Below the pieces are notes generated by a model. It was not told where the DNA came from and searched no databases. It saw only the letters and a list, made by a program, of their open reading frames with translations. A stretch of 64,000 nt of DNA from Whitmania pigra (lineage: Eukaryota > Annelida > Clitellata > Hirudinida > Haemopidae): positions 979,001-1,043,000 of the forward strand of contig JAJTWR010000248.1 of NCBI GenBank assembly GCA_021613335.1, read 5' to 3'. Positions 7,022 to 61,516 of the stretch are shown piece by piece; within the stretch, counting starts at the first letter, position 1, and every line of letters starts with the position of its first letter. The position numbers and the translations under genes are program-made.

Positions 7022-7079
7022 TTAGGTACTCGAGGATATCGAAGGTTCGGATGGTATTGAACTTTCTTCCGATGCTCCG
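7022..7079 (-). CDS. gene A exon 11: cytoplasmic tail and stop
   Basis: The acceptor is tttaacag|C. The tail reads GASEESSIPSEPSISSST and then TAA at 7024-7022. It is short, acidic and serine-rich, and has no tyrosine motif. Confidence 0.8.
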
Positions 7080-10000
7080 CTGTTAAAAACAATTCTATAA
7101 ATTATAACGAAAAGTTCGACATTTTTAGACTACAAACCTGCATGCAAATAAGAGACAGAAGAAAGCTATGGTTCCGCCTATTATTAATGGTAAGATATTT
7201 CTCAATCGTTTCAATAAAGATTTATCCTGATCCTCATCAGCAGTCTGGTCTATTAACAAAATAAATTATCACAATTTAAAATCAAGCATTAAACAATAAA
7301 TTAAATGATTATCATTTATTGAAATATTAAAACATAAGCAAATAGCATCAGATCTAAAATATACAATAAAGAAATTGTCTAATTGAATATGTATAAATAT
7401 ACTTGGACTGGTAAGTATTGTAGGTAGTGTTGTAATTTCAGTGGTAGTGGTTGTGGTTGTGGTTGTGGTCGTGGTTGTGGTTGTTGTCGTGGTTGTGGTT
7501 GTTGTCGTGGTTGTGGTTATGATAAAATCTAAAGTAATATCAAGAATATTAATAATAGTAACAAAATAATCGTGTTAGTTGAGCTGACGATATCGTTTCT
7601 TACTTTCGAAAACATTTAATATTACTTAATTCTAATTTGAATTTTGAATATTGACCATAATTGTAATTATCACAATATGTCATCCAGAGAAACAATTCTT
7701 AAAAGGACTAGTTTTCGACGATAGTCCATATGGTAAATAAAAGGATGCGTGGATCGGTTATGTCAATTGTCACGTTTGCAATGTTTAGTCAGAGTATCTC
7801 AGAGTATCAAATGTCTGTGTCTCTGTATGCTGTGGTAATGGCAACAGCTATAATAAGTCATGTTCGCAGACGGGAATCTCCCTCAGGTAGAGGGCAGAAT
7901 TAAAAGTAAGGTGCACACTTTCATTATATAGTCATATTTACATGACTTTCAAAGAAAAAAAAGATTGGCTAAATATAACCAAGCACAACCTTGTTACTTA
8001 TTTTCTAGACTATAAATTATCGATCTTTCAATTGTTATTGTTCACCAATACAGAAAAATCAAAAAATCCGAAATCAGTTAAATTACCTTTATGCATACAA
8101 TATTCACCACTAAACCCTGATTGGCATCCTTTATCGTCGCAAACTCCGTGCATATCGTTGATATTGGCGCACTTCAATAATATGGTGCAATACAGAGAAT
8201 TACTTCTTTTGCATTCTGTCGAGAGGAAGCAATAAAGTAAATAAATTCCCACTTTAGAAATTGATTTTAAAATCAATTTTGAAGTGGAAAGTTGTTTTGT
8301 CTAATAGAATAGGACAGCGGTTCTCAAGGGTATGCAGGTTGGCCGAATGGGTTACGTGTAGAGATGTGAGCGTGAAATATTTCAATTGTTTTATTTCAAA
8401 ATGTTTTGTTCTTTTTGAAATATTTCAAAATCACAAAAAAAAAACACAAAAAAACATAAAAAACAAAACAAAAAATTTATAACTTTAAAAATGAAGTTTT
8501 GATGTTCTAAAGAAACCACCCTTGTTCTGAAATAATTATTTTTTAAGTTTCCCGATGCTTTCCTATATATTTTACAATTGTGCCCTCTGGTTGAAGCACT
8601 TTTTATGGCTTCGAAAAACTGTTCAGGCAAAAGGTCTTCATTTCCTGATAAAATTTTGAATGCCTCGATGAGGTCCCCTCTATTTCTTCTCTTTTCCAGA
8701 GTTGTTAATTTACATCTACTTAATCTTTCCTCGTAACGCAGCTTTCCAAAACCTTCTATCATCCTGGTTGCCCTTTTTTGTACTCTTTCCAACACTTCTA
8801 CATCCTTTCTCAAATGAGGGTTCCACACTTGCACACAGTACTCAAGATGTGGCCTTACTAATGCCTTATACAATCTTAGTATTAAATACTTGTCCCTACT
8901 CACTACTGTTCTCTTTATCATTCCAAGTACTCTGTTTGCTTTTTTAGCAACTTCCATGCACTGTTGAGATGCTTTTCCATTGTTCTGCATTATTACCCCC
9001 TGATCCCTTTCATGATTAGACTGCTCCAGAATGCTTCATCCAAATACATATTCAACTTTCGTGTATTTGCATCCCATATGCATAATGGAGCATTTGCTTA
9101 TGTTGAAAAGCATCTGCCAATCTTCTGCCCATTTGAATAGGTTGTTAAAGTCATCCTTAAGTATACTCAGTGTTTCAGTGCATATTCATTTATCCAAAAT
9201 GATAAACGGAACCAACTCACCACAAACAGAGCTACAAAACTGGTTTTTATTCCCCAAAACTTAAAGCTGTAAGCTTCTTCAGAAGGTAATTACAACTCTG
9301 AAGCAAAAGACTATTTGGTGAAATGGACTCAGAACTTGATTTAAATTAGCACTGTTGCTCTAGTTTTGTATTATTTTTTACTTATGTTGCAATAAACTTG
9401 TTTAACTAATCATGAACCATCACTTTCAACAAATTTAAAAAAGACAAAACAAAAAAAAAACATAAAAAACAATAAAAAAAACCATAAAAAACTCGGACCA
9501 AAAAAAACATGTTTTTTTACATCTCTAGTAACGTGCCTGCATACAGCGGTAATGGCAGCAGTCGTAATGTGTCGTGTTCGAAACCTGCACTGCCGTTGGG
9601 AAGGAGCGCTATATAAATGGTTAGAAGAAGCGCCTCTGATGCTATGCATGGGGCGCCATATAAATGAAGCTAGATGCTGGCCCTTTGGGTTTATTTGAAT
9701 TATTTGCTTTCGCTTTTTGTTTTTCTATATATATAAAACGGCTTGTTTGTATGTTTGATTCAATAAACTCATAATCCAAAAAAAAAAGATGTGTTTTTTC
9801 AAACTTGCAAATGCTTGAAGACATTTCAAATTATTTTCCTAATTTACCTAACACACAATTTGCACTTGATAAAAGTTCGATAGCGTTTTTTTTTCATTTC
9901 AGCCTTGTTGACATAAGCACAATTGTATCATTGTCATATGCAATTTCAAGAAGAATTTGCAAGCATTCAAATCGTCTTACAGCAATGGACCTGTTACTAA

Positions 10001-22000: not shown

Positions 22001-25000
22001 ATTCCAGTAACTGAAACTAATACAACTAAAACCAGTAATGAAATTGATATAGAAATAATTCAAATTAAATAACTTAAACTTTATAGAAACGAAAATAAAA
22101 GTTAAAAAACTTTTTTAAAACTTGAAAAATTTTATTTTAGTTTCTATTATTTTTCAAAACACTTTCAGCCATATTTCAAATTTTTATTGTCAATAAAGCA
22201 TCAGATAAAAAAATTCTTCATTACATAGATGACAAATCTACATCTCTGGATAGTTTGCGTAAGTATCCCACAGTGAAGAAACTGTTTGTAAAATGCAACA
22301 CTGATAACCTTGTATTGTTGAATGTTGTGGTATTTTGTATTTTGAATAAAAGTATATCAAATATGTATTTTAATATTGATAGGTTAAATATCTACTGAAG
22401 AAAGTATTTGGTATTTCAAATACTCTTTAGCAATCCTCGCCCTTGATGGGTTCAGTCTTCCCATTCTCGATTTCGGACAATTTAGCTCTGCTTATCATTA
22501 AACTTTGAAATTTTTTTTCTTTGAATAAAAAAGAAAATTTCTTAAAACGTTCAAAACTTCCATAGATATGAATTTCATAGGCTGAGTGTACCTGATACAT
22601 ACTTCATACATATATACGTAATAATTATGACATGTGTTATACTCATGATTTGCCCATCGCTAAGCTGTTATGCTAATATTATGTCTCTTTTTTTATTAAT
22701 TAACTAATAATAAAATATGTATTTGTAATACTTTTGTCATTACCTCTATAAGTAGTCATTCCTATACTACTTCCGCAACCTTGACTTCCATCCCCAGAAC
22801 AACTTTGGTAACAATATTTTCCTGGTTCGATTAAACCCGGTGGTTCTGCGTCCAAACAATTGCAAGTATTCCCAAACTTTTTTTTGAAATAATTATTTGA
22901 AATAATAATTTAAAATAGTTATTTATATATTTTTAGTGTAAATTTATAAAAAAACAAAAAAATATTAAATAATGTTATGTGTAACACTAAACACATCAGC
23001 GATGTTGTAAAAAGTAGCACATTTCAGGAATTAGGTAAAAGTACACGTAATATCTCAAACATTTACTTAAGTAGAAGTAAAAGTATTTGTTCAAATATGT
23101 ACTTAATTAAAAGTAAAACGTTACAGGAATTAAAAATTACTTTTAAAAAAGTAAAAATATTGATGCCGTCGTTATTGTGATCATACGTAATTCCATATTA
23201 ATTGAATGCGTATGTGTCAATTGTTGGTATTAACTGCTAGTTCTTACAGTCATTAAGTATTTAAGCAATAACATTTGAACTAATGAAAATGTTTTTATTA
23301 TTTATTAACCAGCACATGTGTTTGTTAACTTTCAACATAACTAAGTTCTAGTCCAAATGCTGCTCAATGTCAGATATTGACTGGCGAACTATTGTTTTGG
23401 TGAAATTTTCCCTTTCGCTGTCATGGTCGTTGTCTACCTTTCCTTTAATTGCACTTTTTGTCGACAATTCAAATTTTGAAATATGTGCTGGATGCGTGCG
23501 TTCCCCATGTTTCTTCAAGTTTGACGACGAACCTTCCAATGCTGAACACATAGTTTATTTTGTTTGCAAACTTATATGATTTTGATTCCTTTGATTTAAA
23601 TATGAACATTGGGATTAAATGTGGTCATGTGTGCTCTTAAACGTTGTTCCCCTTATCATGCTTTCGAATTCTTCCTCCAGACATGACGTTTCAGGAATTT
23701 GTTGCTTTGAATGATGTGGCAAATGATGCAACGATGATTGTGTCAATAAAGCTAAACCTGAAAAAGCGCTGTCGAGTCTAATCTTACGTCAGCGATTATT
23801 TCCCACCAAGAAGCCTCGATTAAAACATTTAAGCTATTATTGCCAATTATTATTATTATTAATGCAAATTCAACACATTCTTTAGAAAATATATCATTTA
23901 AATTATCGAAGATTCAGGACAAGATCTGGGATGTAAAGTTACGAAACACAGAAAAGCCAAGCTTTTTTTAAAATCTTTTTATTTTAACAAATTGTAATAG
24001 CTGAGTATTTTATTTTTAAATCTTGTCAACAAATATGGTAAATTGTTTTTTATTTATCAATTTGTATGGGTTTACTATTTCCTATCTTATAACATAGACT
24101 CCTTGATATACATCCTGCTCCATGATTTCGGCTAAAAAATGTTTCCTTTTCTAATCTGAGGCCATGCCAATAGAACTGATGACCATCAGGTCCATCTAGG
24201 TTAAATTTCTTCTCATCTGAAAAAATAATATTGCCCCAACCATCTCTGTTAGAAAGCATGGTTTTGGCCCATTCCACTCTTGCCAACTTGTGATGGTTTT
24301 TAAGAGCTGGAATCTTTAATCTTTTTTCATATAATAAAATACCACTAGATCTCAAATAATTTAACACTGTACTTTTACAAATTCTTAAATCAAGTTCATT
24401 TCTAATTTGATTTGCTGAAAGTTTACCTGAAGAAGCCTTTCTTACCAGGAGTCTCTGCTGACGAATCGGCAGTTTTTTAGGTCTTCCATGATCATTTTTT
24501 GCCCCATATTCCTCAGGAGCTTTTACGTAGTTTCAGATGACTGTCTTGGATCGCTTGAGCTCTTTGGCAATTTCCCTGATCGAATAATTTGCTTGTCTGA
24601 AAGCGTCAATCTGCCCCTTCTCCTTATCAGACAACGTTTTTCCTCTAGCCATTTATAAAATAGTAATTTTATAAACTTCACATCAATTTTTAACTTTCTT
24701 TGGGTTTATATATTGATAATATTTGCATAATGTGCATTTTGGTTACATAACTATGACAAATTTCAAGTTTTATTGGGAATAAATAGGGATGTCCTTTATC
24801 GTTTTTAAACGGCCATAAAATGCTATTTTGCATATTTTACAAGATCAGCTTGTTAAATTTTTTTAAAATTTTGCAGGATGTTTTGTCTACCATAAAGAGA
24901 TATTATATAAAAAATTGAGTAATATTGAACTTATATTTAACGAGTTATCACAAAAATATGGGGTGTCCTTAAGGTTTATGTCCGCACTGTAGGGAAAATC

Positions 25001-28000
25001 CGCTCATAGGGTCATTTTATGCTGCGAACAAGTATAGGGAGTTTTTACAGTAAATAAATATGTCCAGTGTCTTTGATAATTGCGCTAAACTTAATTTTTC
25101 GTCTTTCCCCCACCCCCAAACCTTTCAGTTCTGGTTTGTAAATATTGTACAGAATAATTTTGCGGCTCATCATTTTATCAGTTATATCTAATCGAACAAA
25201 AAACATCAGCTTATGATCGCAACGTGTAAGTGCCGAACAGTGTACTCTGGAGGGCTTTAGTTTACCAACCCCTGATTTGAAACATTCTTATATTCAAAAT
25301 GAACTGTTAAAACTGTTAAAAACAGGTTTGAAACTGTTAAAAGAATGCACCAATGAAATGTCTGTTATAAAATCGAACAAGCATGAAAATTCTAACCTAA
25401 AATCATTATATGTTACACTAAGAACATAAATAATAAATATAAATAATAAATAATACATAATATAATTAATAAATAAGAACATAAATAAATATATCGAGAC
25501 TGAAAAGTTATACGAACAGCTAAAATAATTTTGTAGACCATGGGCAACATTTTCGGTGGAAATCACCTAAAAAGAGAATTACCTTCAATATAAAGAAATG
25601 CCATTCGTTGCAACTTCTTAGACATTTTACAGTATTCAAGTAATCATCATGCGACCCAGTTGTATCATAGTAATGAGAATGACATCCAACATAATATGGA
25701 AGTGGAGGTTTGACTAAACATGAAAGCACAATTTAGTAAATATATAAAAATATAACATTGGAAAAAAATGATAAAAGATTTGATTAAACAATGTATTTAA
25801 ATACATAAATAATAAATGAATTATTGCATACTCACTAACGTACACAGAAAAGGCATTCGTGCCCCCGCAGTATCTATGGCCTTCACATGGTATGTCACAT
25901 TCATAATCATCTCTCAATTTACTTTCTTGTAATTCATTAAAGCAGACACAATGACTATTTGCCTTTCAATATTTACATTCATTAATATCTTACTTTTGCA
26001 TGCATTTTTAACCAAAGAAAAATGTATAACATGCACCTAAATCCTCATTTTAAATGTTGATATTCAAAAAAATTGCATGTTAAAATCATTTTTAAAGTAT
26101 AAGTGTGTTATATTTATTTAATCATGCATCAATTGACTAAGAAATATTAAGTTTTGCAAAAATATAAATGCGCATTTGTGGTAACATAACATTGAAATCA
26201 TGTGCTATTATAGTGGGTGATATGACTTCAAAGGGCTCTAAGTTAAAGCTACAACTAAAATCCTTAGTGGAGGTCTCCAACATTTTTGTAAGACTAGGAG
26301 GCAACGGAACTTCTTGCGAGAGGTCTTTTCACTACTCTGTAAAAAAATAGACTCTGTCGCGTGGTTTACTCTCGAGTTTATCAACGCAACTCGAAGGAAA
26401 TAGGAAGCGTTATTATCAACTACTTTACGAGCGGATAGGTTCATTTAACAAATAAAATTGCTATCATCAGCCCGATCTCATTGGTCGTTCTAAAGAAATT
26501 ATAATGCTCGGTTTGTGTGACATATGTCTATTTTTATATTTTAGTTCGATTAGAGATCTTTTGTTACGCTTGCCTATGTCGTCGCCATCTTGTGGTCTGA
26601 ACTGTTTTTGATTAGCTGTTATTGTCATTGTGTTTAGACAGTTAAAGATTAAAATAAACGAAAACGTTACAGTTTGCATTATATGAAATCAAATGTTGCT
26701 GCTATTCAGTATTCTGTGACGTGGTTCCTTAAAGCAGTGGTCGCCAACCTTTTTCTCGCCGCGGAATAGTCAACGTTTGATTATTTTACCGCGGCCCACT
26801 GGGGGTGACGTTAATTGTTTATATTTTATTTAATTTTGTTGATTTAGTTTTTTTGACTTAATTGTATTAAACTGTGCCTTTAAAATAAAATACAGTTACT
26901 GAAATAAATGAATATAAGGTGATTTAACATTTTAACTTGTTAGAAGGCTAAATCAATGAGAACCCTAAGCTTTGTTCCTTTGCAACGAGACGGTTCTATC
27001 TGGGGATAACAGGAGACAATGACAGCCGATGTGTGTTGCTTATGTCCAATTTAATCCATTGTTTTGGTTGCTGTCACTACATATAAAATCCCGCTTCATA
27101 AATATAGCATGTCATAAATGATGATAGGGATTTATTTGCTGTGGAGACAATCTCAGTGTATTCCGCCATGACTTTAATCTAGAACACCGGCAGAGTTGCT
27201 GTCTCGAACTTAGGACGCCGTCATTAGCAATCTCCAGCAGTTGATCTTCTTGCACAGACATGTTAGATTCGCCTGGCTTGTTGACAAATGGGTCATTCAT
27301 TCCTTACCAGTTCTTGGGTCTTTTGTGGTTGGGAAGCGCTCAAAATCGAACCAAACACAGGTGCACCTAAGAGAATGAATGCTCAGGCTCGCGTAAAATA
27401 ATCGATAATGTCTGAAGCATGTTCAAATGCCTCTGTTTACGCTCTGTTCCCACAACTCTAGTTTGGCTTCAAATGCAGCTACTTTGTCTGCCAACATGAA
27501 AACAGCTGCCATTTTCCTTATAAGAGAAGACATGTGTGCTCTGTCCACCTCCTCCCAAAGCTGATCAAACAGGCACGAGTTTAGGGCGTGTTCTTTGAGG
27601 GTTTTATGGTCAATAACTTTAACTTTATTTATTTATTTGATTAGAGTCCGTCGCATAACTAAGATGATTTGTACTTAACTTTAACGACATCAATATTCTG
27701 TTAAATAACACGCTAACAAAGAAATGGCAGCGGTTGTTCTCAAGCCGTACTAACTATTTTAGTTATTGAAATAATTAATAAAATAGAAATAAGTTACTGT
27801 TCCTTGATCGGCCCGGTACTATTTGATCCATAGACCGGTACCGGTCCGCGGGCATATTTACAAACCCGTGTCCAGAACGATGCCGGGCTGATTATTATTG
27901 AAATAACCCGGGAGTCCGCAAATAAGCAAGTTAACTAATAAGTTTATTAGAGCAAATATTTAGTTAGAGGAACTGAATAGCAGAAGTTAGGTGTTTAAGG

Positions 28001-40000: not shown

Positions 40001-42011
40001 GCTACCACTACAAGACCAGATATTGCCGCTGCAATTTCTATTCTATGCCGCAGAGTCAGTGTGATTGGACTGCAGTAAAAAGAGTAATCAGATATTTGAA
40101 AGAGACAATAGAATTGAAATTAAAACTGAAGGCAGTTGAAGACTCACAACTGATTCTTACAGGGTACGTAGATGCAGATTGGGCAGGTGATAAATCAGAT
40201 CGCAAATCAACCAGCGGATACCTGTTCAAACTCGGAGAAGGAATAATTTCATGGCAGTCAAAGAAACAAACATCAGTAGCTCTGTCATCAACAGAAGCAG
40301 AATACATCGCCGCTGCTTTGGCAAGCCAGGAGCTAGTTTGGTTAAGACAGCTTCTCTCTGATCTGTGTGTGCCATGTATTCAGTCAACTGCATTGTATGA
40401 AGACAACCAAGGATGCATAAAAATGGCATGCAATGAGAAAGTCAGTGCACGAACAAAGCACATAGATGTTCGACATCATCATCTTCGTGATTTGCAATTT
40501 CGTGATGTCTTGAACTTGAAGTATTGTGCTAGTGATCAAATGCTTGCTGACGTTATGACTAAACCGCTTACAAAGGACAAGTTTTGTAACATTATTGGTA
40601 TGATTGGTTTGCACATTGAGAACTGAAGGTATTGCTGTCGAGTGGGGGTGTTGGAATAGCGACATCAATGTTTTTATTATGTTAATGTTCTCTAGTTGTG
40701 ACCTAGTCATGCTGTGGAGATATATATAGTTCCTTTGTTACATGTTTAGAGTTCTAAGCTTTTTGTTCTCTAGTCGCCATTGTGTTGTTGAGCTTCTACT
40801 GGTTTGTTGATTAAACAACGTTTTATTTTATCAGGAATAGTAGTCGGGAATTAGAATAGGAATAGAAATAGAAATTAGAAATTAGAAATTATTTCAGCAT
40901 TGGTAATTCGAATTGAGTGGAATTTTTAAGGAATTTGAATGGAATTACAATAAGAACAGAAATTCTTTGGCAAATATTAACGGAATTACTATTGTAATGG
41001 AAATTATTTGGCGAATGAAAATAACATTGGTCGGGACGCGTTTAAAATTCATATCACTGAGGAAAAAAATTCAAAAATCAATTCACGCCATTTCTAGAGC
41101 TCCTCTTAAACCATGCCAGAGGTTGTACTTGCTCGAAGTTCACTTAATATCAAGTCTCATCCATACATTTACGTATGAAAATATTTCTCTTAAAGCTTTG
41201 GCGTCCTCTGACACCGCTATTAGGAAGGCAACAAGAAAATGGGTTCATCTTCCGGAGGTTCCAACACCCTTTTGCCATACTCTTGTCGAATATGGTGGCA
41301 TGGGAATTCTACAAATTAAAGAATAGGTTTCAAGTCTTCGCATCCAGAGATTAAAGTGAATTTTGTTTGAAGCCCATTGAGGGAACAACAATTTCATGGC
41401 CGACGTATTCAATGATAACGTCATGTTGAAAGAATTCAGAAAATTTGGAAAGGATATTACAGAGATGCCAAAAGGTGCGTGGTGAAGGGAGTTAATGAGA
41501 GTTTATGTAGGACGGTAGATGGTTATGGTCTGCGCTCATTCTCCGGGACAGGATTGCGTCATAAATAAGCCGAGATACAAATCTCCTCAGTAATCTTCTG
41601 AGGCCTTTGATCGTTGATGATCCTGCATCTCGACATTTGTGAATTTCTCTAGTTCAGTCTGATGGTTTCAGTGATCGCAACATCAAATTGAAGTAGTTTA
41701 TAATTAAAAAAGATATAACGCGATTCATATAAGTAGTAATCGTAAAAAAATCTTATTTTGTAATGTAGTATTTCTGACGAATCCACGATAATTAATTTTG
41801 TTACGTTTGTTGTGTCTCTAAGGCTGCTTGGACAGCAAATAAATTAGACTAAAATTTCACAATATATAATCAATTTTTGATTATGTAGATTTGTGTTACT
41901 TTTCATGAAATGTATATAATAAATGTTTGCAAGGTTACAAATGTCCAATAAATAACCTGAAACTATTTGAAGAAGCAAAACAATGCAACAAGTGTAATAA
42001 AAACAAGTCAT
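7022..42011 (-). CDS. gene A: F5/8C-WSC-WSC-EGF single-pass surface receptor, 11 exons
   Basis: Predicted 474-residue type I membrane protein. Exons, 5' to 3': 42011-41957, 34105-33905, 33640-33422, 33357-33224, 25962-25836, 25713-25583, 22876-22744, 8215-8087, 7528-7403, 7249-7138, 7079-7022. Every junction is GT-AG and the phases (1,1,1,0,1,0,1,1,1,2) join without a stop. Domains: signal peptide 1-19; F5/8 type C-like 20-158; WSC1 about 160-245; WSC2 247-333; EGF 335-376; threonine stalk 378-418; membrane helix 437-455; 19-residue Ser-rich tail. The start is the first ATG, just upstream of a hydrophobic leader and about 40 bases below a TATA motif conserved in gene B. WSC and discoidin domains commonly bind carbohydrate. 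A recognition or adhesion role is inference. Splicing is unconfirmed, and the last intron acceptors in this AT-rich DNA are weak. Confidence 0.85.
7138..7249 (-). CDS. gene A exon 10: transmembrane segment
   Basis: Residues 420-455: acidic QTADEDQDKS, basic LLKRLRN, then the 19-residue hydrophobic helix ILPLIIGGTIAFFCLLFAC. The basic cluster lies on the extracellular side, contrary to the usual positive-inside trend. The donor is GCAG|gtttgt in phase 2. Confidence 0.85.
7403..7528 (-). CDS. gene A exon 9: poly-threonine stalk
   Basis: On the minus strand the GTT/GTG/GTC-rich plus-strand repeat reads as 26 consecutive threonines followed by EITTLPTILTSP. A run like this is expected to be heavily O-glycosylated and extended, lifting the receptor head off the membrane. 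Both splice phases are 1, so the exon can change length freely in threes. Confidence 0.85.
8087..8215 (-). CDS. gene A exon 8: EGF-like domain
   Basis: Residues 335-376 contain six cysteines with the EGF ending GVCDDKGCQSGFSGEYC. The acceptor is a good polypyrimidine tract (cttcctctcgacag). The intron separating it from exon 7 is 14.5 kb, against 1.6 kb in gene B, because of inserted transposons. Confidence 0.85.
8359..9527. mobile_element. non-autonomous hAT element nested in the SINE
   Basis: It starts TAGAGATGTGAGCG and ends ...ACATCTCTA, giving 9-base inverted ends. It is flanked by 8-base duplications GTTACGTG / GTAACGTG (7 of 8 match), the hAT hallmark. Gene B shows the empty site. Both arms contain A-rich caaaaaaac runs, and the middle holds a LINE fragment. 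Confidence 0.75.
8485..8990 (-). pseudogene. CR1/jockey-type reverse transcriptase C-terminal fragment
   Basis: The frame reads MIKRTVVSRDKYLILRLYKA, LVRPHLEYCVQVWNPHLRKD and VEVLERVQKRATRMI, the post-palm region of CR1-like LINE reverse transcriptases. The frame is open through the fragment, but the polymerase motifs are absent. It lies within the hAT arms. Confidence 0.8.
10080..10690 (-). pseudogene. CR1-like LINE fragment
   Basis: Minus-strand pieces include FAPAKFQTLLLIG, GDIVRDLGVLID and, upstream, LSAGPDGIPN, all standard in CR1/jockey reverse transcriptases. The order is preserved but the frame is broken. It begins next to an AT-rich tail near 10060-10080. Confidence 0.65.
10753..12336 (-). 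pseudogene. LINE reverse transcriptase frame
   Basis: A 527-residue frame covers reverse transcriptase fingers, palm and thumb (motif A DLSAAFD, motif B GVPQGPVLGPL, altered motif C YADNTSLY, then LGVTFDSHLSF and LDYCNSLLYGAP). It ends with ELFKRQLKTHLFKKF, typical of L2/Rex1-like elements. The D-to-N change in the catalytic pair predicts no activity. Confidence 0.85.
12395..13198 (-). pseudogene. LINE endonuclease end and linker frame
   Basis: This starts at the SDHHLI box of the APE endonuclease and runs through the linker (RRRLNSIDWDTFERDL, DPFPTSLLKK) that precedes the reverse transcriptase. One frameshift separates it from the polymerase frame. Confidence 0.75.
13535..14011 (-). pseudogene. 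LINE endonuclease N-terminal frame
   Basis: LGLLNARSAVNKAALIQD, ALDILALTETWI and KRGGGIAVIHR match the first strands of an APE-type endonuclease. The glutamate of TETW is the catalytic metal ligand and is present. Confidence 0.75.
14480..15490 (+). pseudogene. ZBED5/SCAND3-like hAT transposase remnant
   Basis: Plus-strand fragments in order: CVGLCTDGAAGMTGR, then CVIHREALAAKNMNEDIA, IVSFIKARLFNHRLFENMC, NLSLQGPVTNVMKTHDKVDD, a SGLPLLSFW region and CEAAFSAVTAIMTKYRSRL. This is the middle and C-terminal part of the hAT family domesticated in vertebrates as ZBED5/FAM200-type proteins. Several frame breaks make it non-functional. Confidence 0.8.
15500..16295. other. no gene recognised
   Basis: AT-rich sequence with scattered short frames. 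I see no domain and no terminal repeat in this interval. Confidence 0.3.
16647..18674 (+). pseudogene. zinc-finger reverse transcriptase ORF, motif A deleted
   Basis: Residues 6-27 form a C2H2 finger (CTCGRVFATERGLKVHQTKS). The polymerase follows, with SAPGPNGVPYLLYKRCP, FRPISLLNVEGKIFFSIMAS, SVQKGGIPGVPGCIEHTS, MGCTISPSLFVL and the catalytic FMDDTTLI. Between CIEHTS and the WVPLEVGIAMGCT block, the segment that normally holds motif A with the first catalytic aspartate is missing in frame. A frameshift ends the ORF before the C-terminal region. Confidence 0.8.
18674..19290 (+). pseudogene. C-terminal part of the zinc-finger LINE ORF
   Basis: Reading in the shifted frame gives GKWTTWEDVMQRSLTWSD, AIRSVYDQLPFRDNLQKWG and CRLCGGTETLHNVLSNC. 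The last is the C-x2-C-x7-H-x4-C knuckle that precedes the endonuclease in this LINE group. The endonuclease catalytic region is not recognisable afterwards. Confidence 0.7.
19458..19914. other. intron sequence shared with gene B
   Basis: AT-rich. The part 19730-19914 matches 51310-51500 of gene B, which then continues with sequence matching 22559 onward. It therefore marks the left edge of material inserted into gene A. Confidence 0.6.
19915..20690 (+). pseudogene. hAT (Ac-like/ZBED1-type) transposase fragment
   Basis: The plus strand reads LTEDEVAVVKDLAKSLEIIE then ATTLCRRDVTISKSE. Later, in a frame open at 20258-20680, it reads LPPSSVETEMCFNAAGLFI and KLRSSLSDDMIDSLCF, the hAT dimerisation region. 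One stop near 20158 and an altered S-x-E-x-x-F-S core indicate decay. The flank of gene B lacks it. Confidence 0.75.
20940..21332 (+). pseudogene. jockey/CR1-like reverse transcriptase fragment
   Basis: SAGPDDVPNIFLKRCASSLA, QEWKVALVAPIYKKG and NYRPISITS are the opening reverse transcriptase motifs of jockey-like LINEs. The fragment stops after HLTHQKLIDASQH. Confidence 0.75.
21365..21730 (-). pseudogene. fragment of the zinc-finger LINE polymerase thumb
   Basis: On the minus strand WPLTIYKIGQSAVVTLQ, RFSRRWLGLPPCMTS and LRLPLRSIVEKFMIG match the corresponding segment of the 16.3-19.5 kb element. This is an independent truncated copy in the opposite orientation. Confidence 0.7.
21900..22010 (-). 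pseudogene. Tc1-like transposase scrap
   Basis: The minus-strand stretch WTNVIFSDETKFKMDGPDN carries the D of the Tc1 DDE triad context (F-S-D-E-x-K-F). Only about 30 residues are recognisable. Confidence 0.55.
22744..22876 (-). CDS. gene A exon 7: WSC2, second half (hypervariable)
   Basis: Residues 290-333: NTCNCLDAEPPGLIEPGKYC, YQSCSGDG, GCGSSIGMTTYR, a WSC C-terminal half. The acceptor follows a purine run (aaaaaaaag), unusual but at the same position and phase as in gene B. The donor is AGAG|gtaatg. Confidence 0.75.
23003..23600 (-). pseudogene. BED-finger hAT remnant (copy in gene A intron)
   Basis: The minus-strand frame 23551-23348 gives CSALEGSSSNLKKHGERTHP, a BED zinc-finger end. 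The left edge at about 23003 resembles a hAT terminus (agcgatgttgtaaaaagt). The same remnant occurs in gene B (51959-52540), and a better copy begins at 62808. Confidence 0.65.
24111..24993 (-). mobile_element. one-ended Tc1-like element
   Basis: Minus-strand transposase from ATG near 24652: MARGKTLSDKEKGQIDAFRQ, an HTH region, then FSDEKKFNLDGPDGHQFYWH. The right end is a terminal repeat reading tacagtgcggacataaac inward. The left boundary falls abruptly within the transposase after ...RNHGAG, with no inverted repeat. Gene B shows the uninterrupted host sequence at 52745-52765, and TA is present at both borders. Confidence 0.75.
24994..25582. other. intron sequence shared with gene B
   Basis: This matches 52751-53295 of gene B with small indels. 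No coding signal was seen. Confidence 0.6.
25583..25713 (-). CDS. gene A exon 6: WSC2, first half (hypervariable)
   Basis: Residues 247-289. It begins KPPLPYYVGCH, identical to gene B down to the codons, and then diverges strongly (SHYYDTTGSHDDYLNTVK). The WSC cysteines (GC, KC, SC) are retained. The donor is TTGAAG|gtaatt in phase 0. Confidence 0.8.
25836..25962 (-). CDS. gene A exon 5: WSC1, second half
   Basis: Residues 204-245: HCVCFNELQ, YECDIPCEGHRYCGGTNAFS and VYV. This is the canonical C-x-C ... C-x-x-x-C-x-(G)-x-x-x-x-C-G-G-x-x-x-x-x-V-Y ending of WSC domains. The acceptor is gaaag|GCAAAT and the donor is GTTA|gtgagt. Confidence 0.85.
26160..26350 (+). repeat. chimeric LINE/hAT scrap in intron 4 of gene A
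   Basis: The sequence coding KGSKLKLQLKSLVEVS resembles the thumb of the zinc-finger LINE (LQLPLRSIVEEYKLS) and recurs at 53940-54000 and 54300-54360 in gene B. It is followed here by TSCERSFHYSV, a hAT-like C-terminal scrap. Confidence 0.45.
28203..29101 (-). pseudogene. continuation of the SAP-ORF element protein, repeated module
   Basis: Two minus-strand frames each contain a module beginning LVSVE(K/N)(D/R)TEEI(V/I)(D/E)RGTLGE and followed by an E-E-S-G-K-L segment. This suggests internal duplication within the protein. The distal part has a hydrophobic run (VLLFVVLIFFIKRF) and ends at the LTR-adjacent purine tract. A third copy of the module (VSVGTKTEEMVSGSTLRKK) occurs at 32401-32465. 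Confidence 0.55.
29128..29430 (-). CDS. SAP-domain gag-like protein, N-terminal part
   Basis: MSKVLENLTVAEMRRELKLK followed by GSRKELQDRLQSWI is a SAP-type helix-extension-helix motif, known at the N-terminus of some Gypsy gag proteins. It starts 35 bases inside the 5' LTR. The frame stops after about 100 residues, and similar coding continues in other frames (29101-28892, 28802-28203). Confidence 0.65.
   Translation of the reverse strand: MSKVLENLTVAEMRRELKLKQMDWKGSRKELQDRLQSWITDQGEDPVDYLFIDPFHKLFLARMENLQASIRREIAVVTDKVTEASVNTSYELEENMAKHQ
30225..30405 (-). repeat. tRNA-derived SINE with (TTA)n tail
   Basis: On the minus strand the box A-like TTAGCTCAGAGGGTAGCG is followed by a degenerate body and the tail GGCGCCATACAAATGAAC(TTATTATT)n. 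The tail matches the 3' end of the LINE at 10.9 kb. Confidence 0.7.
31385..31610 (-). repeat. tRNA-derived SINE, most complete copy
   Basis: On the minus strand: GGTTAGCCGAATGGGTTACG (box A), GTGTTCGAAACCCAG (box B), then the core GCGCTATATAAATGGTTAC and the tail with GCGCCTCTGACGCTATGC. A short duplication of its head (cacgccgaacccattcgg) lies at 31580-31610. Confidence 0.75.
31655..31712 (+). ncRNA. degenerate hammerhead-ribozyme-like motif
   Basis: TGATGAGGTC (31674-31683), an A/G-rich loop, GGGTCGAAACGCGTC (31692-31706). This has the order UGAUGA, stem II, CGAAAC, short stem III, GUC of the minimal hammerhead known from Penelope-like elements. GGUC can pair with GGGUC only with two G-U wobbles, and the C of CUGAUGA is not in its proper place. 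No Penelope protein is visible nearby. Probably an inactive relic, if real. Confidence 0.35.
31713..32320. other. unassigned repeat-rich stretch in intron 4 of gene A
   Basis: This has no domain-bearing frame. It contains a run (ccctaaccccagccctagcccc) around 31895-31920 and AT-rich sequence. Confidence 0.3.
32321..32476 (+). pseudogene. fragment of the SAP-ORF element
   Basis: The plus-strand frame contains ALVSVGTKTEEMVSGSTL, matching the repeated module of the element at 27.9-29.7 kb. An LTR-like end (ggaccccaggttatttca) follows at about 32976-32993, beyond a fold-back insertion. Confidence 0.6.
32477..32968. mobile_element. fold-back element with tandem-repeat arms, copy 1
   Basis: The left arm is built of agccccgtcaaaac-type units. 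The right arm is the inverted array ending TGTTATGACGGGGTGCC. A unique centre of about 220 bases lies between. The outermost left repeats are decayed, so the start is approximate. It interrupts an older SAP-element/LTR remnant. Confidence 0.75.
33224..33357 (-). CDS. gene A exon 4: WSC1, first half
   Basis: Residues 160-203 with RGCYAQMEGVPEEMSWENCQ and QKCFDGNYIFASIK. The pattern G-C-Y, C-x-x-x-C and a following small aromatic run is that of WSC domains. The upstream intron (33358-33421) is only 64 bases and is conserved in length in gene B. Confidence 0.8.
33422..33640 (-). CDS. gene A exon 3: F5/8C-like domain, second part
   Basis: Residues 87-158. This contains EHCADYPFKHIVAGVP, then NCRDHNKLFSEIIL and the closing strand NFDIVEFEV. 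The last resembles the L-C-E-V-E-V end of fucolectin domains. The donor gggtaaat opens a 64-base intron. Confidence 0.8.
33905..34105 (-). CDS. gene A exon 2: F5/8C-like domain, first part
   Basis: This encodes VNVALGKVATF, then LLDGDKNP and ELKIQLGKPYSVNYVIIYPG, matching the start of fucolectin/F5-8C domains (N-x-A-L-G-K-x-A-T, D-G-D, x-Q-L-G-x-x-x-x-V-x-Y-V-I-I). The acceptor is atgcag|GTTATG and the donor is GAAA|gtcagt. Residues 20-85. Confidence 0.8.
34120..34855. repeat. two tandem copies of a ~370-base upstream sequence
   Basis: 34130-34490 and 34490-34850 are near copies (shared acgacggaactttaatttgc, gtaacaagccttcagtaaca, ggggtacaccg). Gene B has a single partial copy at 56675-56840. 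Each half ends with a cccgagggtctacaaac-like LTR remnant. Confidence 0.6.
34857..35110 (-). repeat. 3' end of a zinc-finger LINE
   Basis: The reverse complement matches the last ~260 bases of the 16.3-19.5 kb element, including gatccctgtcggag, cccgaaaacgtaaggag and the gctccagtccaggc(gt) region. It is a related but clearly different copy. Confidence 0.7.
35110..36325 (+). pseudogene. jockey/R1-like LINE fragment with RNase H end
   Basis: Plus-strand pieces: GVFLDLEKAFDVVLREGI (motif A), FLGIVLDAKLSWSAHAEAV, VLDYGCEVVDLG, LRNWCSGMRGTSASFLLVEC and YTDASKTTNNKAGLGIHTP (RNase H start). The palm is largely deleted and frames change. The Copia element was inserted at its right end. Confidence 0.75.
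36326..36510 (+). repeat. Copia 5' LTR
   Basis: 185 bases, TG...CA termini, containing a tatatatag promoter-like motif (about 36400). Identical by eye to the 3' LTR. Confidence 0.95.
36511..36524 (+). promoter_or_regulatory. Copia primer-binding site, half-tRNA type
   Basis: GGTTATGGGCCCAG directly after the LTR is complementary to the anticodon arm of initiator methionine tRNA (CUGGGCCCAUAACC), not to its 3' end. Drosophila copia is known to prime from such a cleaved half-tRNA. Confidence 0.8.
36683..40078 (+). CDS. Copia gag-pol polyprotein (frameshifted near its end)
   Basis: 1131 residues from ATG in the first good context after the leader. In order: gag (about 1-220); CCHC knuckle CFVCKKPGHLKKNC near 228; aspartic protease WFIDSGATTHMT near 298; pre-integrase zinc motif with LWHRRLGHRDP near 434; integrase catalytic region FIDDYSRY near 519, SDNGGEYTG near 562 and YSPAQNGVAERKNR near 590; reverse transcriptase YDVKTAFLNGQIDEELYMKQ near 915 and LLYVDDLLICG near 1000. 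All catalytic acidic residues are visible. The frame leaves the expected path after AAISILCRRV at about 40055 and ends 8 codons later. It would act in cytoplasmic virus-like particles and in nuclear integration. Confidence 0.9.
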   Translation: MAESNDNKYTVAKLNNSNYQVWKFKVKMLLIRENTWSVVQDEIPNPVPEGWTRKDEKAQCTISLTVEDNQLIHICNCNSAKDMWSELQKVHERSNLNSKMYLRKKLYKIRLQKDQNMQEYISSTLQLVEELRGVGEEVTDQQIATLLLCCLPDEYETLITALEAREKDELTLEYVKNKLVDAYKRKKDCDADSTESKTETALYSGNFRSSNQMNNRYEKQSKEQETRTCFVCKKPGHLKKNCRIWKARQEQNRGEQPKSRHKVKSALTVELTGSEDDDDSHGCFTTGIGTTTSDWFIDSGATTHMTNNLNFFTVLDQTKTDKIYFANGSSINADGIGNGYLNCLLKDGKIHRVKIKSVLYVPTLTGSLLSVKKLTSENRKVEFAGNQCFIKDNNRILAIGKLDCGLYKLSCKNDSTFACVAKSEVKHQECIHLWHRRLGHRDPNAIKRIITEEIATGIHITGCCVMMKCDHCIKGKSTLKSYPKMSEHCSKQPLDLIHSDVCGPMKTQTPGKNKYMVTFIDDYSRYTICYLIKKKDEVADKYREFVAEVSNKFQRKPKVLRSDNGGEYTGNKQIAYLKQEGIRLQTSAPYSPAQNGVAERKNRSIVEMAKCMLLDAGLSQQYWGEAVMTAVYLQNRLPTTATNKSPFELWNGEKPDLSHIRIFGCKAFAYIPKEKRSKFDDRATEAVLVGYSEQSKAYRLLLTDSNRIIISRSVTFVEDESNSGMRTVQQMNPDGTNEEMHPAINENDEIKIQVPSEDIEDKIENNGNIEKEIDQPRRSTRSNKGVPAKRLSLMVQNEVKKEPSSWKEMTLLPEKEQKNWIKAAEEEMNSHNDNKTWILCDLPANKKAIDCKWVFKLKHDVESNAHRHKARLVAKGFTQRFGEDFDDTFAPVARHITLRTLLTVAASKKMQVNHYDVKTAFLNGQIDEELYMKQPEGFIKPCEEHKVCQIKKALYGLKQSARSWNQKIDSILKMNGFKQSKADLCLYTKKYDDNFAFILLYVDDLLICGNSEIIKKTASMLNQHFEIKNLGEVSLYLGIQIERDKDGSFLLSQNSKIQDVISEFGLTDAKGIATPMHADYLNITEDENLLPSNEQYQKAVGALLYIATTTRPDIAAAISILCRRVSVIGLQ
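40045..40626 (+). pseudogene. Copia RNase H region in the shifted frame
   Basis: QCDWTAVKRVIRYLKETIEL continues the thumb. It is followed by the RNase H GYVDADWAGDKSDRKSTSGY, LSSTEAEYIA, YEDNQGCIKMA and TKHIDVRHH. The frame is open to the stop at 40626 but out of phase with gag-pol by a small indel. This makes the copy defective unless frameshifting occurs. Confidence 0.85.
40649..40833 (+). repeat. Copia 3' LTR
   Basis: 185 bases, preceded by the purine tract gagtggggg and followed by the GGAAT target duplication. Confidence 0.95.
41020..41330 (+). pseudogene. R2-like reverse transcriptase C-terminal fragment (unit 1)
   Basis: AISRAPLKPCQRLYLLEVHL, IRKATRKWVHLPEVPTPFC and YGGMGILQIKE match the post-polymerase segment of R2/NeSL-like LINEs. 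An almost identical copy lies at 57395-57705 upstream of gene B, so it was present before duplication. Confidence 0.75.
41957..42011 (-). CDS. gene A exon 1: signal peptide
   Basis: ATG opens MTCFYYTCCIVLLLQIVSG, a short hydrophobic leader ending in a small-residue cleavage context. The donor is TCAG|gttatt in phase 1. It joins the next exon to give the G-Y-A-T-M-V-N-V start of the discoidin-like domain. The matching exon of gene B differs by I for T at residue 7. Confidence 0.8.
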
Positions 42012-42718: not shown

Positions 42719-43269
42719 GGCACCTCGTCATAACAGCCCGGCGACAAAATAGCCCCGTCAAAACAGCCCGGCGTCAAAATAGCCCCGTCAAAACAGCCCC
42801 GACAAACCAACCCCTTCAATATAGCCCGGCGACAAAATAGCCCCGTCAAAAGAGCCTCGTCAAAATAGCGGTAGAATTGGTTCTTTGTGGATTTGTTGCC
42901 TGTTCACATGACATGATGATAAGGTGAGGATGATTTATATTAAATACAAACTTGAAAAGTCCACGTAAAGTGAGGAAGTAGCCGGAATCCTAATAATATT
43001 TTAGAAGATAAATCTTCAAACCCCTAATTTCGAATTAAATTTGGAACCAGTTATCGGTTAATGTATTCAACTCTCAAAATTTGTTTAAATACATTGACGG
43101 GGCTGTTTTGACGGGATTTCTTCGTCCTGGGCTATTATCGTCAACGGGCTGTAATGACGGGGTTGTTTTGACGGGGCTATTTTGTCCAGGACTATTTTGA
43201 CACGGGGCTGTTATGATGGGGCTGTTTTGTCGGGGCTATTATGTCGCCGGGCTGTTATGACGGGTCACC
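42719..43269. mobile_element. fold-back element with tandem-repeat arms, copy 2 (bounded by empty site)
   Basis: 551 bases. It starts GGCACCTCGTCATAACAGCC and ends with the inverted GGCTGTTATGACGGGTCACC. The flanking duplication ATTCAAATCC occurs at 42709-42718 and 43270-43279. The paralogous flank of gene B at 59793-59802 has one ATTCAAATCT and no insert. Confidence 0.9.
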
Positions 43270-43869: not shown

Positions 43870-44142
43870 GTACATAAACCCCAAACATTGATTTTAAAAA
43901 CATACTTCTTCGACAGTCATTTGTTTTTGAAACATTTCCCAAAGAAGTTTGCATTTAAAAAATTACATGTGGAGTTAGGAAGCATAATATTGGTTTACGG
44001 ATCACAATAATTCAAAGCAGTAACGTCTTCTTCCAAAGAAGATAACAACTTAAATTAAGATGAGCTTTCCAATTGAAATTCATTAAACGATTGAATGATG
44101 GTGTTGTCTTGGTTTTGTTTAAGGTTTAGTTTTGTATTGTAA
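43870..44142 (-). other. 3' UTR-like flank of relic gene D
   Basis: This is similar to the 3' flank of genes A (6726-6960) and B (48640-48850). It is closer still to that of C (60750-60850), sharing gatgagctttccaattgaaa. Confidence 0.6.
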
Positions 44143-44329
44143 TTAAAGTGTCTCATAAACAGTTGGAAGAACTGCATACTCAGTATTTAAAATTCTACTT
44201 ATCTTAAATTCCACATCAACGTACAACGTCAAACCCAATACGCCAGAAGCAAAAGTACCACTGCACTCAATTAATGATATGGGATGAAGCTCCACGGTCT
44301 CATGTGCCTCTCTCGCGGTAGATAGACTC
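44143..44329 (-). CDS. relic gene D: alternative last exon with tyrosine motifs
   Basis: The acceptor atatcttttag|G is followed by 62 codons in phase 2, the phase required by the membrane exon of the family. The stop is TAA at 44145-44143. The tail runs SLSTAREAHETVELHP to TEYAVLPTVYETL and carries two Y-x-x-L motifs close to the C-terminus. The position is that of a last exon in the array, but no membrane exon is found upstream before unit 2 begins. D is therefore probably a remnant, or an exon used by a gene I cannot see. Confidence 0.5.
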
Positions 44330-46790: not shown

Positions 46791-46791
46791 A

Positions 46792-48919: not shown

Positions 48920-59077
<10,158 letters not shown>

Positions 59078-59124: not shown

Positions 59125-60977
59125 TTTTGATAAGTTATTTCAGATATTTGTTACAGATTTTACATTAAAAATGAATGTTTTTAACGATTGAAATGATAGC
59201 AATATGTTATTTTTAGGATTTAAATGAACATCTTGAGATTTTGGATTACTAATTCTTAGACCGTGTTTTCAAAAATTTGTTAGAAACGGTCGCGTATTTG
59301 TTTATTTGCCTTTTAAGAAAGTGCAACCAATATGAGTACATAAAATAATTTTTTTTATGTATTTCTGCGTATTAGTGCAACATCTAAAAAGGAAATATGT
59401 AGCAATTTATAATAATTTAACTAATGATGACTTTAAATTATTAATGTTAAAAAGAGGCGTTACAGTGGCGTAGCCAGGTTTTAAAACTAGTGGGGCGACC
59501 AATAAAAATAAATTTTTATAATTCAATTAATTAAATTTATTATGATTATCCGTATTTTGTTATTGTTTCAAAATGAACTCTCAAAAGGTGTTTAAAAAAA
59601 AACAAATTTATGTATAGTAATGTGTAAGATAATAACGACTAAATTAATTACAAAAACTTTTTTTTTCGGCATCCGTCATCTTCTACTATTTCCCCATGGA
59701 ATCTTTCTTTTTCGAATTCTATGTGGCTTACAGTCACTACTAATACTACATTTGAAGCTGAGTTGTGTCATCCTCAATTTCTTGAAACTCGTATTCAAAT
59801 CTATTTCGCTTATTTTTTAAATCATTTTCATATTGCTGAATCACATGAGAAGCTGTTAAAATCAACTATACTTTTCTAAAAAAAATAAAAAAATACGTGG
59901 ACAATTTGAAAGCTTTCTCTGAATGGCACTTTTTCCAAAATATTGGAAGAACCAAAGATTCATATATAATAAGTGTTACAAGAAGACCCCATGCCGCAGC
60001 CAAATTTTTAGCAGTGAAGTTTTTTTCCACCACATGCCAATCCTTGCAGAGCCACTGCTAGCGCGGTATTCTGAAACACTACATCTACTTTTGATTTCAT
60101 CGATGTCCATCTAGCAGCGACAATCCAAGAGAAGAAAGGTGTGGCAGAAAGTGCCAAGGGGCGGCCTTTTGAGGGAGTACGTAAAAATTACAATAATTAA
60201 CAAATGTCCAGTTATTCAAAACAATTGTTCTCCAGCTTTTCTGCTGTGTCAGAACAGATTTCAATTTGTCATTTGGTATAACGTATCAACTGATGTACAA
60301 TATGTACGAGCCACTCATCAAAGAGAATCACTTAACACCTTAAATCACTGTAACCCTCATCACGTCACACCTGTTCATCATCTAGTCTAATGAGTCTTTT
60401 GATCAGAAGGGTGTATACGGAACTATTCCGAGACCGTAGCTTATTGTACATTGAATCATTCCGTTTTCATTAACTTGCTACTTTCATTCACGATAGTTAT
60501 TGTTATATTTATTATTGTTATATTATTAATATATATATTATTGTTGTAAAGATTCTTTTTAAGTAAATGTTTGGATTCGCAAGTATCTCGGTATTTGGTT
60601 AATATAAGCTTAACGAAAGCTAACGACTCTAATCAGATGAATCTTATATGAAAGGGGAAGGGGGTCCATAGGAAGGCTCGAACCGACACTGTTTTTTCGG
60701 AGGCTCTGGATCACAAAATAGTTCTACGCAATAAGATCTTCTTCCAAAGAAGATAACAAATTGAATTAAGATGAGCTTTCCAATTGAAATTCATTAAATG
60801 ATTGAATGCTGGTCTTGGTTTTTTTTAAGTTTTAGTTTTGTAATGTAATTAAATTAATTTTCTTAATGTCTTTTCAGGAATAAATTGAGTGAAGTATTTA
60901 CGAGAAATTACTAATAAACAAAAACTAATTTTATAAGATTGTCCAATATCTTTAATTTCTATTTCGATGGTATCGAA

Positions 60978-61516
60978 CTATTCTTTTGATCCGCTATTAT
61001 GAATAATTGCCCAAAAATATAATGCCTGGTCTACATTTCTTGGATGATGTTGCACGCGGACTTCCGAACTTGCTGCAAACAGACTGCAAACTGGAGGACA
61101 TACAAAACGAATGTGAACACATTCTGACTCTTAGTAAAGATGTAAATGCCATTGCAAAATTTTCAAGTGCTGTGCATGTGGTCTAGAGAAACAGCAAAAG
61201 GAAGCATCGACCTGAGTTCCGTAGCAAAAAACCCGGCCGACCTTTCATCTGTGACGAGACAACTTATATAAAAAATATTAAAATAACCCGGGGATCAGCT
61301 AATAAGTTTATTAAAGCAATAAGTTTATTAGGCCTCTCCCACAGTCCCTCCTTCGATTATTTCCTATGTTCTCTTTCCAGCATCGGCATTTTTAGACTGC
61401 TAACCTGCATGCACACATGAGACAGCAGAGAGCTATGGTTCCGCCTATTATCAATTGTAAAATATTTCTCATTCGTTTCACTAAAGTTTTCTCCTCGTCC
61501 GTAACAGTAGTCTGGT
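60978..61516 (-). CDS. gene C, last two exons (membrane segment and tail)
   Basis: Exon 61516-61405 encodes QTTVTDEEKTLVKRMRN and the helix ILQLIIGGTIALCCLMCAC, with the same length and phases (1 in, 2 out) as in A and B. The last exon 60993-60978 gives SGSKE then TAG. The following non-coding sequence still resembles the tails of A and B, so an early stop truncated it. Earlier exons are not visible. LTR and hAT insertions follow on the right, and the rest of the gene may lie beyond the window. Confidence 0.7.
61265..61330 (-). repeat. LTR fragment of the SAP-element family
   Basis: aaataacccggggatcagctaataag matches the inner end of the family LTR. It is truncated. Confidence 0.5.

What the first reader, a model, noticed from the sequence alone, without database searches (positions are those of the whole stretch)
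7022..61516. Undescribed tandem array of F5/8C-WSC-WSC-EGF-TM receptor genes
Two complete 11-exon genes and the 3' ends of two more lie head to tail on one strand. The architecture (signal peptide, discoidin-like head, two WSC domains, EGF, pure threonine stalk, one helix, short variable tail) is not one I know as a named receptor family. Clustered, stalked, lectin-like surface proteins are what one expects of self/non-self or cell-recognition systems. The gene models come from sequence, with all 20 junctions GT-AG and in phase. The functional reading is inference.
Basis: partly seen in the sequence, partly recalled or inferred. Interest (0 to 1): 0.95.

Follow-up and report, generated by a model that had tools for sequence, protein, structure and literature searches.

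The report
Leech stalked receptors, one diversified domain
The window carries two complete neighbouring genes of a leech family of stalked cell-surface proteins, in which one small domain has changed far faster than chance while the rest stayed alike, as expected of molecules that must recognise changing partners.

Summary
The gene models are right: two complete 11-exon genes on the minus strand (A 42011-7022, B 59077-48920), 20 of 20 introns GT-AG, same phases. Of the "two more" 3' ends I find one, a lone TM exon at 61516-61405. The genome (178.17 Mb, 381 contigs) is a leech, probably Whitmania pigra (inference). It holds two more intact copies and an allelic contig, and at least 40 related head exons outside probable haplotigs. 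Pfam confirms only the WSC domains; head and EGF fall below cut-offs. New result: the second WSC domain is hypervariable between paralogs. Nonsynonymous divergence is 25-34%, against 6-13% in adjoining introns (Fisher p 8e-9 to 5e-19) and 7-17% at its synonymous sites. Head and first WSC show no such excess. Its eight cysteines are fixed in the four copies. A young pair on another contig repeats the pattern in one exon. Best reading: a germline-diversified surface-recognition family with WSC2, perhaps EGF, as specificity module. Ligand, tissue and expression are unknown; allelic self-recognition is not supported by the one allele pair seen.

The parts
41957..42011 (-). Gene A exon 1, start and signal peptide (MTCFYYTCCIVLLLQIVS)
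   Evidence: Conserved ATG-hydrophobic-donor exon in five of five copies; borders
33905..34105 (-). Gene A exon 2, head (discoidin/fucolectin-like) first half
33422..33640 (-). Gene A exon 3, head second half
33224..33357 (-). Gene A exon 4, WSC1 first half
   Evidence: Pfam WSC
25836..25962 (-). Gene A exon 5, WSC1 second half
25583..25713 (-). Gene A exon 6, WSC2 first half (hypervariable)
   Evidence: dN/dS
22744..22876 (-). Gene A exon 7, WSC2 second half (hypervariable)
   Evidence: acceptor set by hand
8087..8215 (-). Gene A exon 8, EGF-like
7403..7528 (-). Gene A exon 9, threonine stalk
   Evidence: microsatellite
7138..7249 (-). Gene A exon 10, transmembrane helix
   Evidence: hydropathy
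7022..7079 (-). Gene A exon 11, short cytoplasmic tail and stop
59023..59077 (-). Gene B exon 1, start and signal peptide (MTCFYYICCIVLLLQIVS)
56445..56645 (-). Gene B exon 2, head first half
55961..56179 (-). Gene B exon 3, head second half
55766..55896 (-). Gene B exon 4, WSC1 first half
53553..53679 (-). Gene B exon 5, WSC1 second half
53296..53429 (-). Gene B exon 6, WSC2 first half (hypervariable)
51722..51854 (-). Gene B exon 7, WSC2 second half (hypervariable)
49989..50117 (-). Gene B exon 8, EGF-like
49316..49423 (-). Gene B exon 9, threonine stalk (96 nt on the other haplotype)
49051..49162 (-). Gene B exon 10, transmembrane helix
48920..48989 (-). Gene B exon 11, short cytoplasmic tail and stop
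61405..61516 (-). Gene C relic: lone transmembrane exon, no upstream exons found

Best explanation
These are type I surface receptors of a family expanded in a leech. Shown from sequence: a hydrophobic leader, a compact head that resembles discoidin/fucolectin domains, two 8-cysteine WSC domains, a 6-cysteine EGF-like domain, a threonine stalk encoded by a microsatellite of varying length, one helix, and a tail of 19-26 residues without an ITIM or YxxPhi motif. Also shown: the copies arose by duplication, and after duplication amino-acid change was driven in WSC2, and less clearly in EGF, while its cysteine scaffold and the head and WSC1 stayed alike. Inferred: the (presumably O-glycosylated) stalk holds the head above the glycocalyx; the head and WSC1 bind a shared ligand or partner chain; the variable WSC2 loops give each paralog a different specificity for a changing counterpart, most likely glycans or proteins of microbes, gut symbionts or parasites met on blood cells or epithelia. 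Signalling, if any, goes through a partner, because the tail is short.
For: Four intact copies, open across 11 exons, 40 of 40 introns GT-AG, same phases. WSC2 pooled dN 0.363, dS 0.148, ratio 2.45, above 1 in 6 of 6 pairs; head 0.74, WSC1 0.76, EGF 1.93. WSC2 nonsynonymous 0.25-0.34 against adjoining introns 0.06-0.13, Fisher p 8e-9 to 5e-19; N above S at p<0.05 in 5 of 6 pairs. Codon model free against omega=1: WSC2+EGF 2dLL 8.99, p 0.003; WSC2 alone p 0.035. WSC2: 31 of 88 ungapped columns invariant against 68 of 86 in WSC1, with 8 invariant cysteines in each. Independent young pair on C37: WSC2a nonsynonymous 13/96.7 against introns 10/396, p 6e-5, and above WSC1b nonsynonymous, p 0.02. 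40 of 48 head-exon places lie on seven contigs outside probable haplotigs. A profile of the four copies aligns over WSC2 with the solved chain 7pz2, E 0.0034 (that 7pz2 is the yeast Wsc1 domain is recalled).
Against: No transcript evidence. The six pairs come from four paralogs and are not independent. TM+tail also has a pooled ratio above 1 (1.43), not significant (p 0.25), and WSC1 exceeds 1 in 1 of 6 pairs. In the C37 pair N against S alone is not significant (p 0.19), only WSC2a could be compared, and one copy has lost a WSC2a cysteine. WSC2 synonymous divergence is slightly above introns in 2 of 6 pairs (p about 0.04). EGF alone is not significant in the codon model (p 0.08). IQ-TREE omega values were not read, and kappa under omega=1 came from a grid. 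The F-type lectin sugar motif is absent. Stalk, TM and signal exons were not established for the C352 and C37 genes.
Confidence: 0.6

Rival explanations
1. Self/non-self or gamete recognition: the proteins are allo- or gamete-recognition determinants, polymorphic between individuals.
For: Clustered, fast-evolving, stalked surface proteins; WSC2 dN above dS. A paper on sea urchin REJ sperm proteins holds the term 'WSC domain' once (PMC1934368, search listing only).
Against: Alleles B and B' differ by one base in WSC2 apart from a single-base deletion, against 4 changes in the head's first exon; one allele pair only. The diversity seen lies between paralogs.
Confidence: 0.15
2. Relaxed constraint or recombination: WSC2 is dispensable, or its exons were swapped in from old paralogs, so it drifts.
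For: WSC2 synonymous divergence is a little above introns in 2 of 6 pairs; many possible donors exist; one C37 copy lacks a WSC2a cysteine.
Against: Drift cannot push nonsynonymous change two- to fourfold above introns. Swaps from old donors would raise synonymous divergence as much. In the four close copies all 8 cysteines and the KPPLPYYVGCH entry are kept.
Confidence: 0.1
3. Mechanical or adhesion sensor like yeast Wsc1: WSC domain, Ser/Thr-rich spring, one helix, short tail.
For: WSC, then Thr-rich stalk, helix and short tail; WSC2 aligns with the solved chain 7pz2 (its identity as yeast Wsc1 and the Wsc1 layout are recalled).
Against: A strain sensor gives no reason for diversifying selection in one domain or for so many copies; the head, second WSC and EGF have no counterpart there (recalled).
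Confidence: 0.08
4. Relatives of secreted annelid proteins such as glycerotoxin, acting on prey or host.
For: Glycerotoxin has two WSC domains and an EGF domain, a signal peptide, and at least three paralogs in an annelid (PMC5336659 passages).
Against: These proteins have a TM exon and tail in 4 of 4 intact copies, no CCP match, about 470 residues and not about 140 kDa, and carry a head that the passages seen do not mention. No sequence comparison was made.
Confidence: 0.07

Closest known systems
Kremen (Kringle-WSC-CUB-TM)
   Same: Type I membrane protein with a WSC domain; a phase-0 intron inside the WSC of Xenopus kremen 2 (PMC3927609 passage), as in both WSC domains here
   Different: One WSC, Kringle and CUB, no discoidin-like head, EGF or Thr stalk (domain list from the passage; few genes and no diversification are recalled)
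Glycerotoxin of Glycera (annelid)
   Same: Two WSC domains and an EGF domain, signal peptide, at least three paralogs (PMC5336659 passages)
   Different: A venom protein of about 140 kDa with a CCP domain; no TM helix or discoidin-like head in the passages seen
F-type lectins / fucolectin-related and F5/8C domain proteins
   Same: Similar pattern in the head; best though weak PDB profile hit is fucolectin-related 2j22 (E 0.45); Pfam F5_F8_type_C_2 listed for 5 of 6 heads, best E 9e-4
   Different: Member 1 is under both Pfam cut-offs; fucose motif HX24RXDX4(R/K) absent in 4 of 4 (motif from a PMC5712786 passage; test)
Yeast WSC sensors (Wsc1 type)
   Same: WSC domain, Ser/Thr-rich stretch, one helix, short tail (recalled); profile hits 7pz2 at E 0.0034
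   Different: Two WSC plus head and EGF; an expanded animal family with diversifying selection
Diversified invertebrate recognition families (FREPs, Dscam, Alr, Themis; recalled)
   Same: Multigene or variable recognition molecules with hypervariable segments
   Different: Other domains (Ig, fibrinogen, PKD1-like); no WSC variable module, as recalled

Membership tests
WSC domain (PF01822) | Profile score over the curated cut-off | tested here: met
   B: 42.8 bits (whole protein) and 45.1 bits against 27.8, two stretches; 4 of 4 copies listed, best E 9e-16
WSC domain (PF01822) | Eight conserved cysteines | tested here: met
   8 invariant cysteine columns in WSC1 and in WSC2 across four copies; that eight is canonical is recalled; one C37 copy lacks one in WSC2a
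F5/8 type C / discoidin | Profile score over the curated cut-off | tested here: not met
   Member 1: F5_F8_type_C 15.8 bits against 28.2, F5_F8_type_C_2 13.4 against 27.8; bits of the other 5 heads were not shown, best E 9e-4
F-type lectin | Fucose motif HX24RXDX4(R/K) | tested here: not met
   Absent in 4 of 4, also with a relaxed spacing
F-type lectin | Cation motif h2DGx with h = V, A or I | tested here: not met
   LLDGD in 4 of 4: similar shape but Leu
EGF-like domain | Profile over cut-off | tested here: not met
   EGF_STAB1-2 15.1 bits against 27
EGF-like domain | Six cysteines | tested here: met
   Six invariant cysteines in the EGF exon in four copies; spacing judged by eye, pairing not tested
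Type I membrane receptor | Signal peptide and one C-terminal helix | tested here: met
   Hydropathy 2.5-2.9 over 19 residues at the C end and a hydrophobic N end in 4 of 4; no dedicated predictor run
Glycerotoxin family | CCP domain, no TM, secreted | tested here: not met
   TM exon in 4 of 4 intact copies; no CCP match in the Pfam scan of B
Allorecognition determinant | High allelic polymorphism segregating with acceptance or rejection | tested here: inconclusive
   One allele pair only, nearly identical in WSC2; behaviour not testable
Kremen | Kringle and CUB domains | tested here: not met
   Neither appears in the Pfam scans

The most novel reading that the evidence does not exclude
Leeches carry a germline receptor repertoire in which a WSC domain is the variable, specificity-giving module, set between a conserved lectin-like head and a microsatellite-encoded threonine stalk: a new kind of variable domain in animal recognition.
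Probability: 0.35. Interest if true: 0.8.

Novelty: new variant of a known kind. Interest (0 to 1): 0.6.

Why it matters
Annelids have no well-known diversified recognition receptors (recalled). A family with at least 40 related head exons, and selection aimed at one small disulfide-rich domain in the copies tested, gives a concrete candidate and shows which domain and residues to test. So far as the listings I saw go, a WSC domain under diversifying selection in an animal receptor has not been described.

Tried and rejected
Homologs: no protein scored E 0.01 or better in the large protein collection (1588 candidates, none), no PDB hit by single sequence, none in viral contigs. These collections are mostly not animal (my understanding), so absence says little. 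Paper searches: 0 papers hold both 'WSC domain' and 'allorecognition'; the listings (25 of 174 seen; 20 of 30; 2 of 2; 12 of 107; 4 of 4; 4 of 4; 12 of 23) showed no description of this family. The search for the assembly by its numbers failed. Four COX1 matches lie in frames of 542-715 residues and were not read. Rfam found nothing at gathering thresholds in the window. I considered drift, exon swapping, a secreted toxin-like role and a Wsc1-like sensor: see rivals. Structure prediction was not tried, since a protein joined from exons is not read letter for letter from one stretch of DNA. In the six-row head alignment the C37 row lacks the start of its second exon, which I left out; searches used that row.
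Full report
What is there. The minus strand carries two complete genes. Gene B runs from 59077 to 48920 (472 codons) and gene A from 42011 to 7022 (474 codons). Each has 11 exons: signal peptide, head in two exons, WSC1 in two, WSC2 in two, EGF, threonine stalk, transmembrane helix, tail. GT-AG borders hold at 20 of 20 introns (the acceptor of A's WSC2b exon was set by hand, since one search returned none). Phases are 1,1,1,0,1,0,1,1,1,2 in A, B and two further copies, and among the ten exons before the tail lengths differ only by multiples of three. The signal exon was found because the same short ATG-hydrophobic exon with a donor in the right phase recurs in five of five copies. Introns of A are long (up to 14.5 kb) and hold frames of mobile elements.

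The third gene. One more exon of the family lies at 61516-61405. No convincing head, WSC or EGF match follows upstream up to C146:1073000, and the allelic contig C145 shows the same lone exon. I call it a relic. I did not find a fourth 3' end; about 150 bases at 43999-44147 resemble a stretch at 60708-60853, which in turn resembles the 3' flanks of A and B.

Domains. Pfam accepts only WSC (42.8 and 45.1 bits against 27.8 for B; 4 of 4 copies listed). The head of B falls under the cut-offs of F5_F8_type_C (15.8 against 28.2) and F5_F8_type_C_2 (13.4 against 27.8); the latter is listed for 5 of 6 heads, best E 9e-4, bits not shown. A profile of six heads hits a fucolectin-related structure first, but at E 0.45, followed by ribosomal proteins. 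The fucose motif of F-type lectins is absent in 4 of 4 (motif read in a PMC5712786 passage; test). So a fucolectin-like fold is plausible but sugar binding of that type is not indicated. The EGF exon has six invariant cysteines but is under cut-off. A profile of the four copies aligns over WSC2 with the solved chain 7pz2 at E 0.0034 (its identity as the yeast Wsc1 domain is recalled). Both WSC domains are split by a phase-0 intron, as reported for Xenopus kremen 2 (PMC3927609 passage), and the introns between domains are phase 1, the usual sign of exon-shuffled extracellular modules (recalled).

Organism. The window is C146:979001-1043000 of a genome of 178,173,256 bases in 381 contigs. It has 44 innexin matches, 4 of them over the whole model in one open frame, 5 matches to the erythrocruorin linker family, 4 over cut-off (that this family marks annelids is recalled), 58 antistasin matches and one hirudin match over 19 of 64 positions (E 2e-4). 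A published Whitmania pigra assembly has 178.87 Mb in 483 contigs with N50 about 2.0 Mb (PMC10111769 passage); another has 181.4 Mb in 437 contigs (PMC10087013 passages). I infer a leech, probably W. pigra; no sequence of that species was compared.

Family. In some searches I count 48 distinct places that match the first head exon; 40 lie on C335 (16), C352 (10), C37 (7), C146 (3), C351 (2), C220 (1) and C3 (1), and 8 on C145 (1), C85 (4), C77 (2) and C114 (1). C145 is a second haplotype; that C85, C77 and C114 are too is inferred from rows with equal scores. Counts are lower bounds for matches, since the tool scores only the best candidates, and I did not show that every head exon belongs to a whole gene. 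Intact close copies are A, B, Z (C146:973672-940107, outside the window, 469 codons) and one on C3 (305661-295915, 468 codons, its stop three codons later than in B). Their synonymous distances are 0.08-0.18. Within the 30 kb fetched, C3 shares only the gene and about 1 kb upstream with C146, so it looks like a dispersed duplicate. C145 is collinear with C146:1017609-1061962 at 98.2-99.98% identity over the longer pieces, with several interruptions, so B' is an allele of B. B' differs by five point changes outside the stalk, three substitutions and a 12-base deletion in the stalk, one single-base indel in WSC2a and two in EGF; the indels may be sequencing error. More distant genes with head, WSC, WSC and EGF exons in the same order are seen on C352 and C37, mostly at 35-60% identity per exon; their signal, stalk and TM exons were not established. 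The Pfam head domain gives 61 matches, many on C18, C362, C192, C89 and C74.

Selection. I compared A, B, Z and C3 by Nei-Gojobori counts. Pooled over six pairs the ratio dN/dS is 0.74 for the head, 0.76 for WSC1, 2.45 for WSC2, 1.93 for EGF, 0.37 for the stalk, 0.41 for the signal exon, 1.43 for TM+tail and 1.15 overall. WSC2 exceeds 1 in 6 of 6 pairs, WSC1 in 1 of 6, the head in 0 of 6. Introns give a larger neutral reference: nonsynonymous sites of WSC2 differ by 25-34%, adjoining introns by 6-13%, Fisher p from 8e-9 to 5e-19 (intron counts rebuilt from rounded proportions); WSC2 synonymous sites differ by 7-17%, above introns at p about 0.04 in 2 of 6 pairs; nonsynonymous exceeds synonymous at p<0.05 in 5 of 6 pairs. 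A codon model with free omega beats omega=1 for WSC2+EGF (2dLL 8.99, p 0.003) and WSC2 (p 0.035), not for signal+head+WSC1 (p 0.09), EGF alone (p 0.08) or TM+tail (p 0.25); the omega estimates were not read, and kappa under omega=1 came from a grid. In WSC2 31 of 88 ungapped columns are invariant against 68 of 86 in WSC1, and eight cysteines are fixed in both. The pairs share sequences and are not independent.

Replication. Two young paralogs on C37 give the same picture in the one WSC2 exon that could be compared: WSC2a nonsynonymous 13/96.7, synonymous 1/29.2, introns and flank 10/396 (p 6e-5 against introns; p 0.02 against WSC1b nonsynonymous; p 0.19 against synonymous sites), while WSC1b (4/101.8, p 0.50) and EGF (5.5/101.9, p 0.11) do not differ significantly from introns. 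One of the two lacks a WSC2a cysteine.

How it most likely works. Shown: a stalked type I protein, duplicated several times, with selection for change in WSC2. Inferred: WSC2 loops, perhaps with EGF, meet a partner that changes, such as microbial or symbiont surface molecules, and each paralog covers another variant; the head and WSC1 do a shared job; the tail of 19-26 residues lacks ITIM and YxxPhi motifs, so signalling needs a partner. A self-recognition role is less likely because the one allele pair is almost identical in WSC2.

Novelty. In print I saw two WSC domains with EGF in the annelid glycerotoxin (PMC5336659 passages), a venom protein with a CCP domain, and WSC in Kremen. Discoidin-type (F5/8C) proteins are reported in leech saliva as possible lectins and immune components (PMC7191736 passages). 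The listings I saw show no paper on this architecture or on diversifying selection in animal WSC domains; several were capped and the library lacks most subscription journals.

Noticed in passing
32471-32964, 42718-43269, 50485-51095, 54531-55489: Four foldback-like elements whose arms hold inverted arrays of a 14-base unit (such as CCCCGTCAAAATAG). The one at 42718-43269 is flanked by a 9-10 base duplication (ATTCAAATC) and is absent from the matching place in B (59793-59801) (inverted arms checked for two of the four). They resemble Foldback/MULE elements (recalled) and could help duplicate the genes.
   Followed up: partly
36326-40835: A copia-type retroelement (class recalled from its frames) in intron 1 of gene A, opposite strand, with 187-base end repeats that are 100% identical, so a recent insertion.
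   Followed up: no
49316-49423 and C145:10712-10807: Stalk length differs between two haplotypes of gene B by 12 bases (four codons) and between paralogs from 90 to 126 nt; the stalk is a coding microsatellite.
   Followed up: partly
G000 contigs C18, C362, C192, C89, C74: Further clusters of exons with the Pfam galactose-binding head domain (61 matches in all). C18, C362, C89 and C74 have no WSC match in the list, C192 has many: a wider expansion of such proteins in this leech.
   Followed up: no
C49:87323-88759, C360:1526649-1527977, C47:141167-142459, C115:43339-44682: COX1-type frames of 542-715 residues without stops in the standard code, which may mean bacterial contigs in the assembly.
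   Followed up: no
58197-58471: A long GT microsatellite inside intron 1 of gene B.
   Followed up: no
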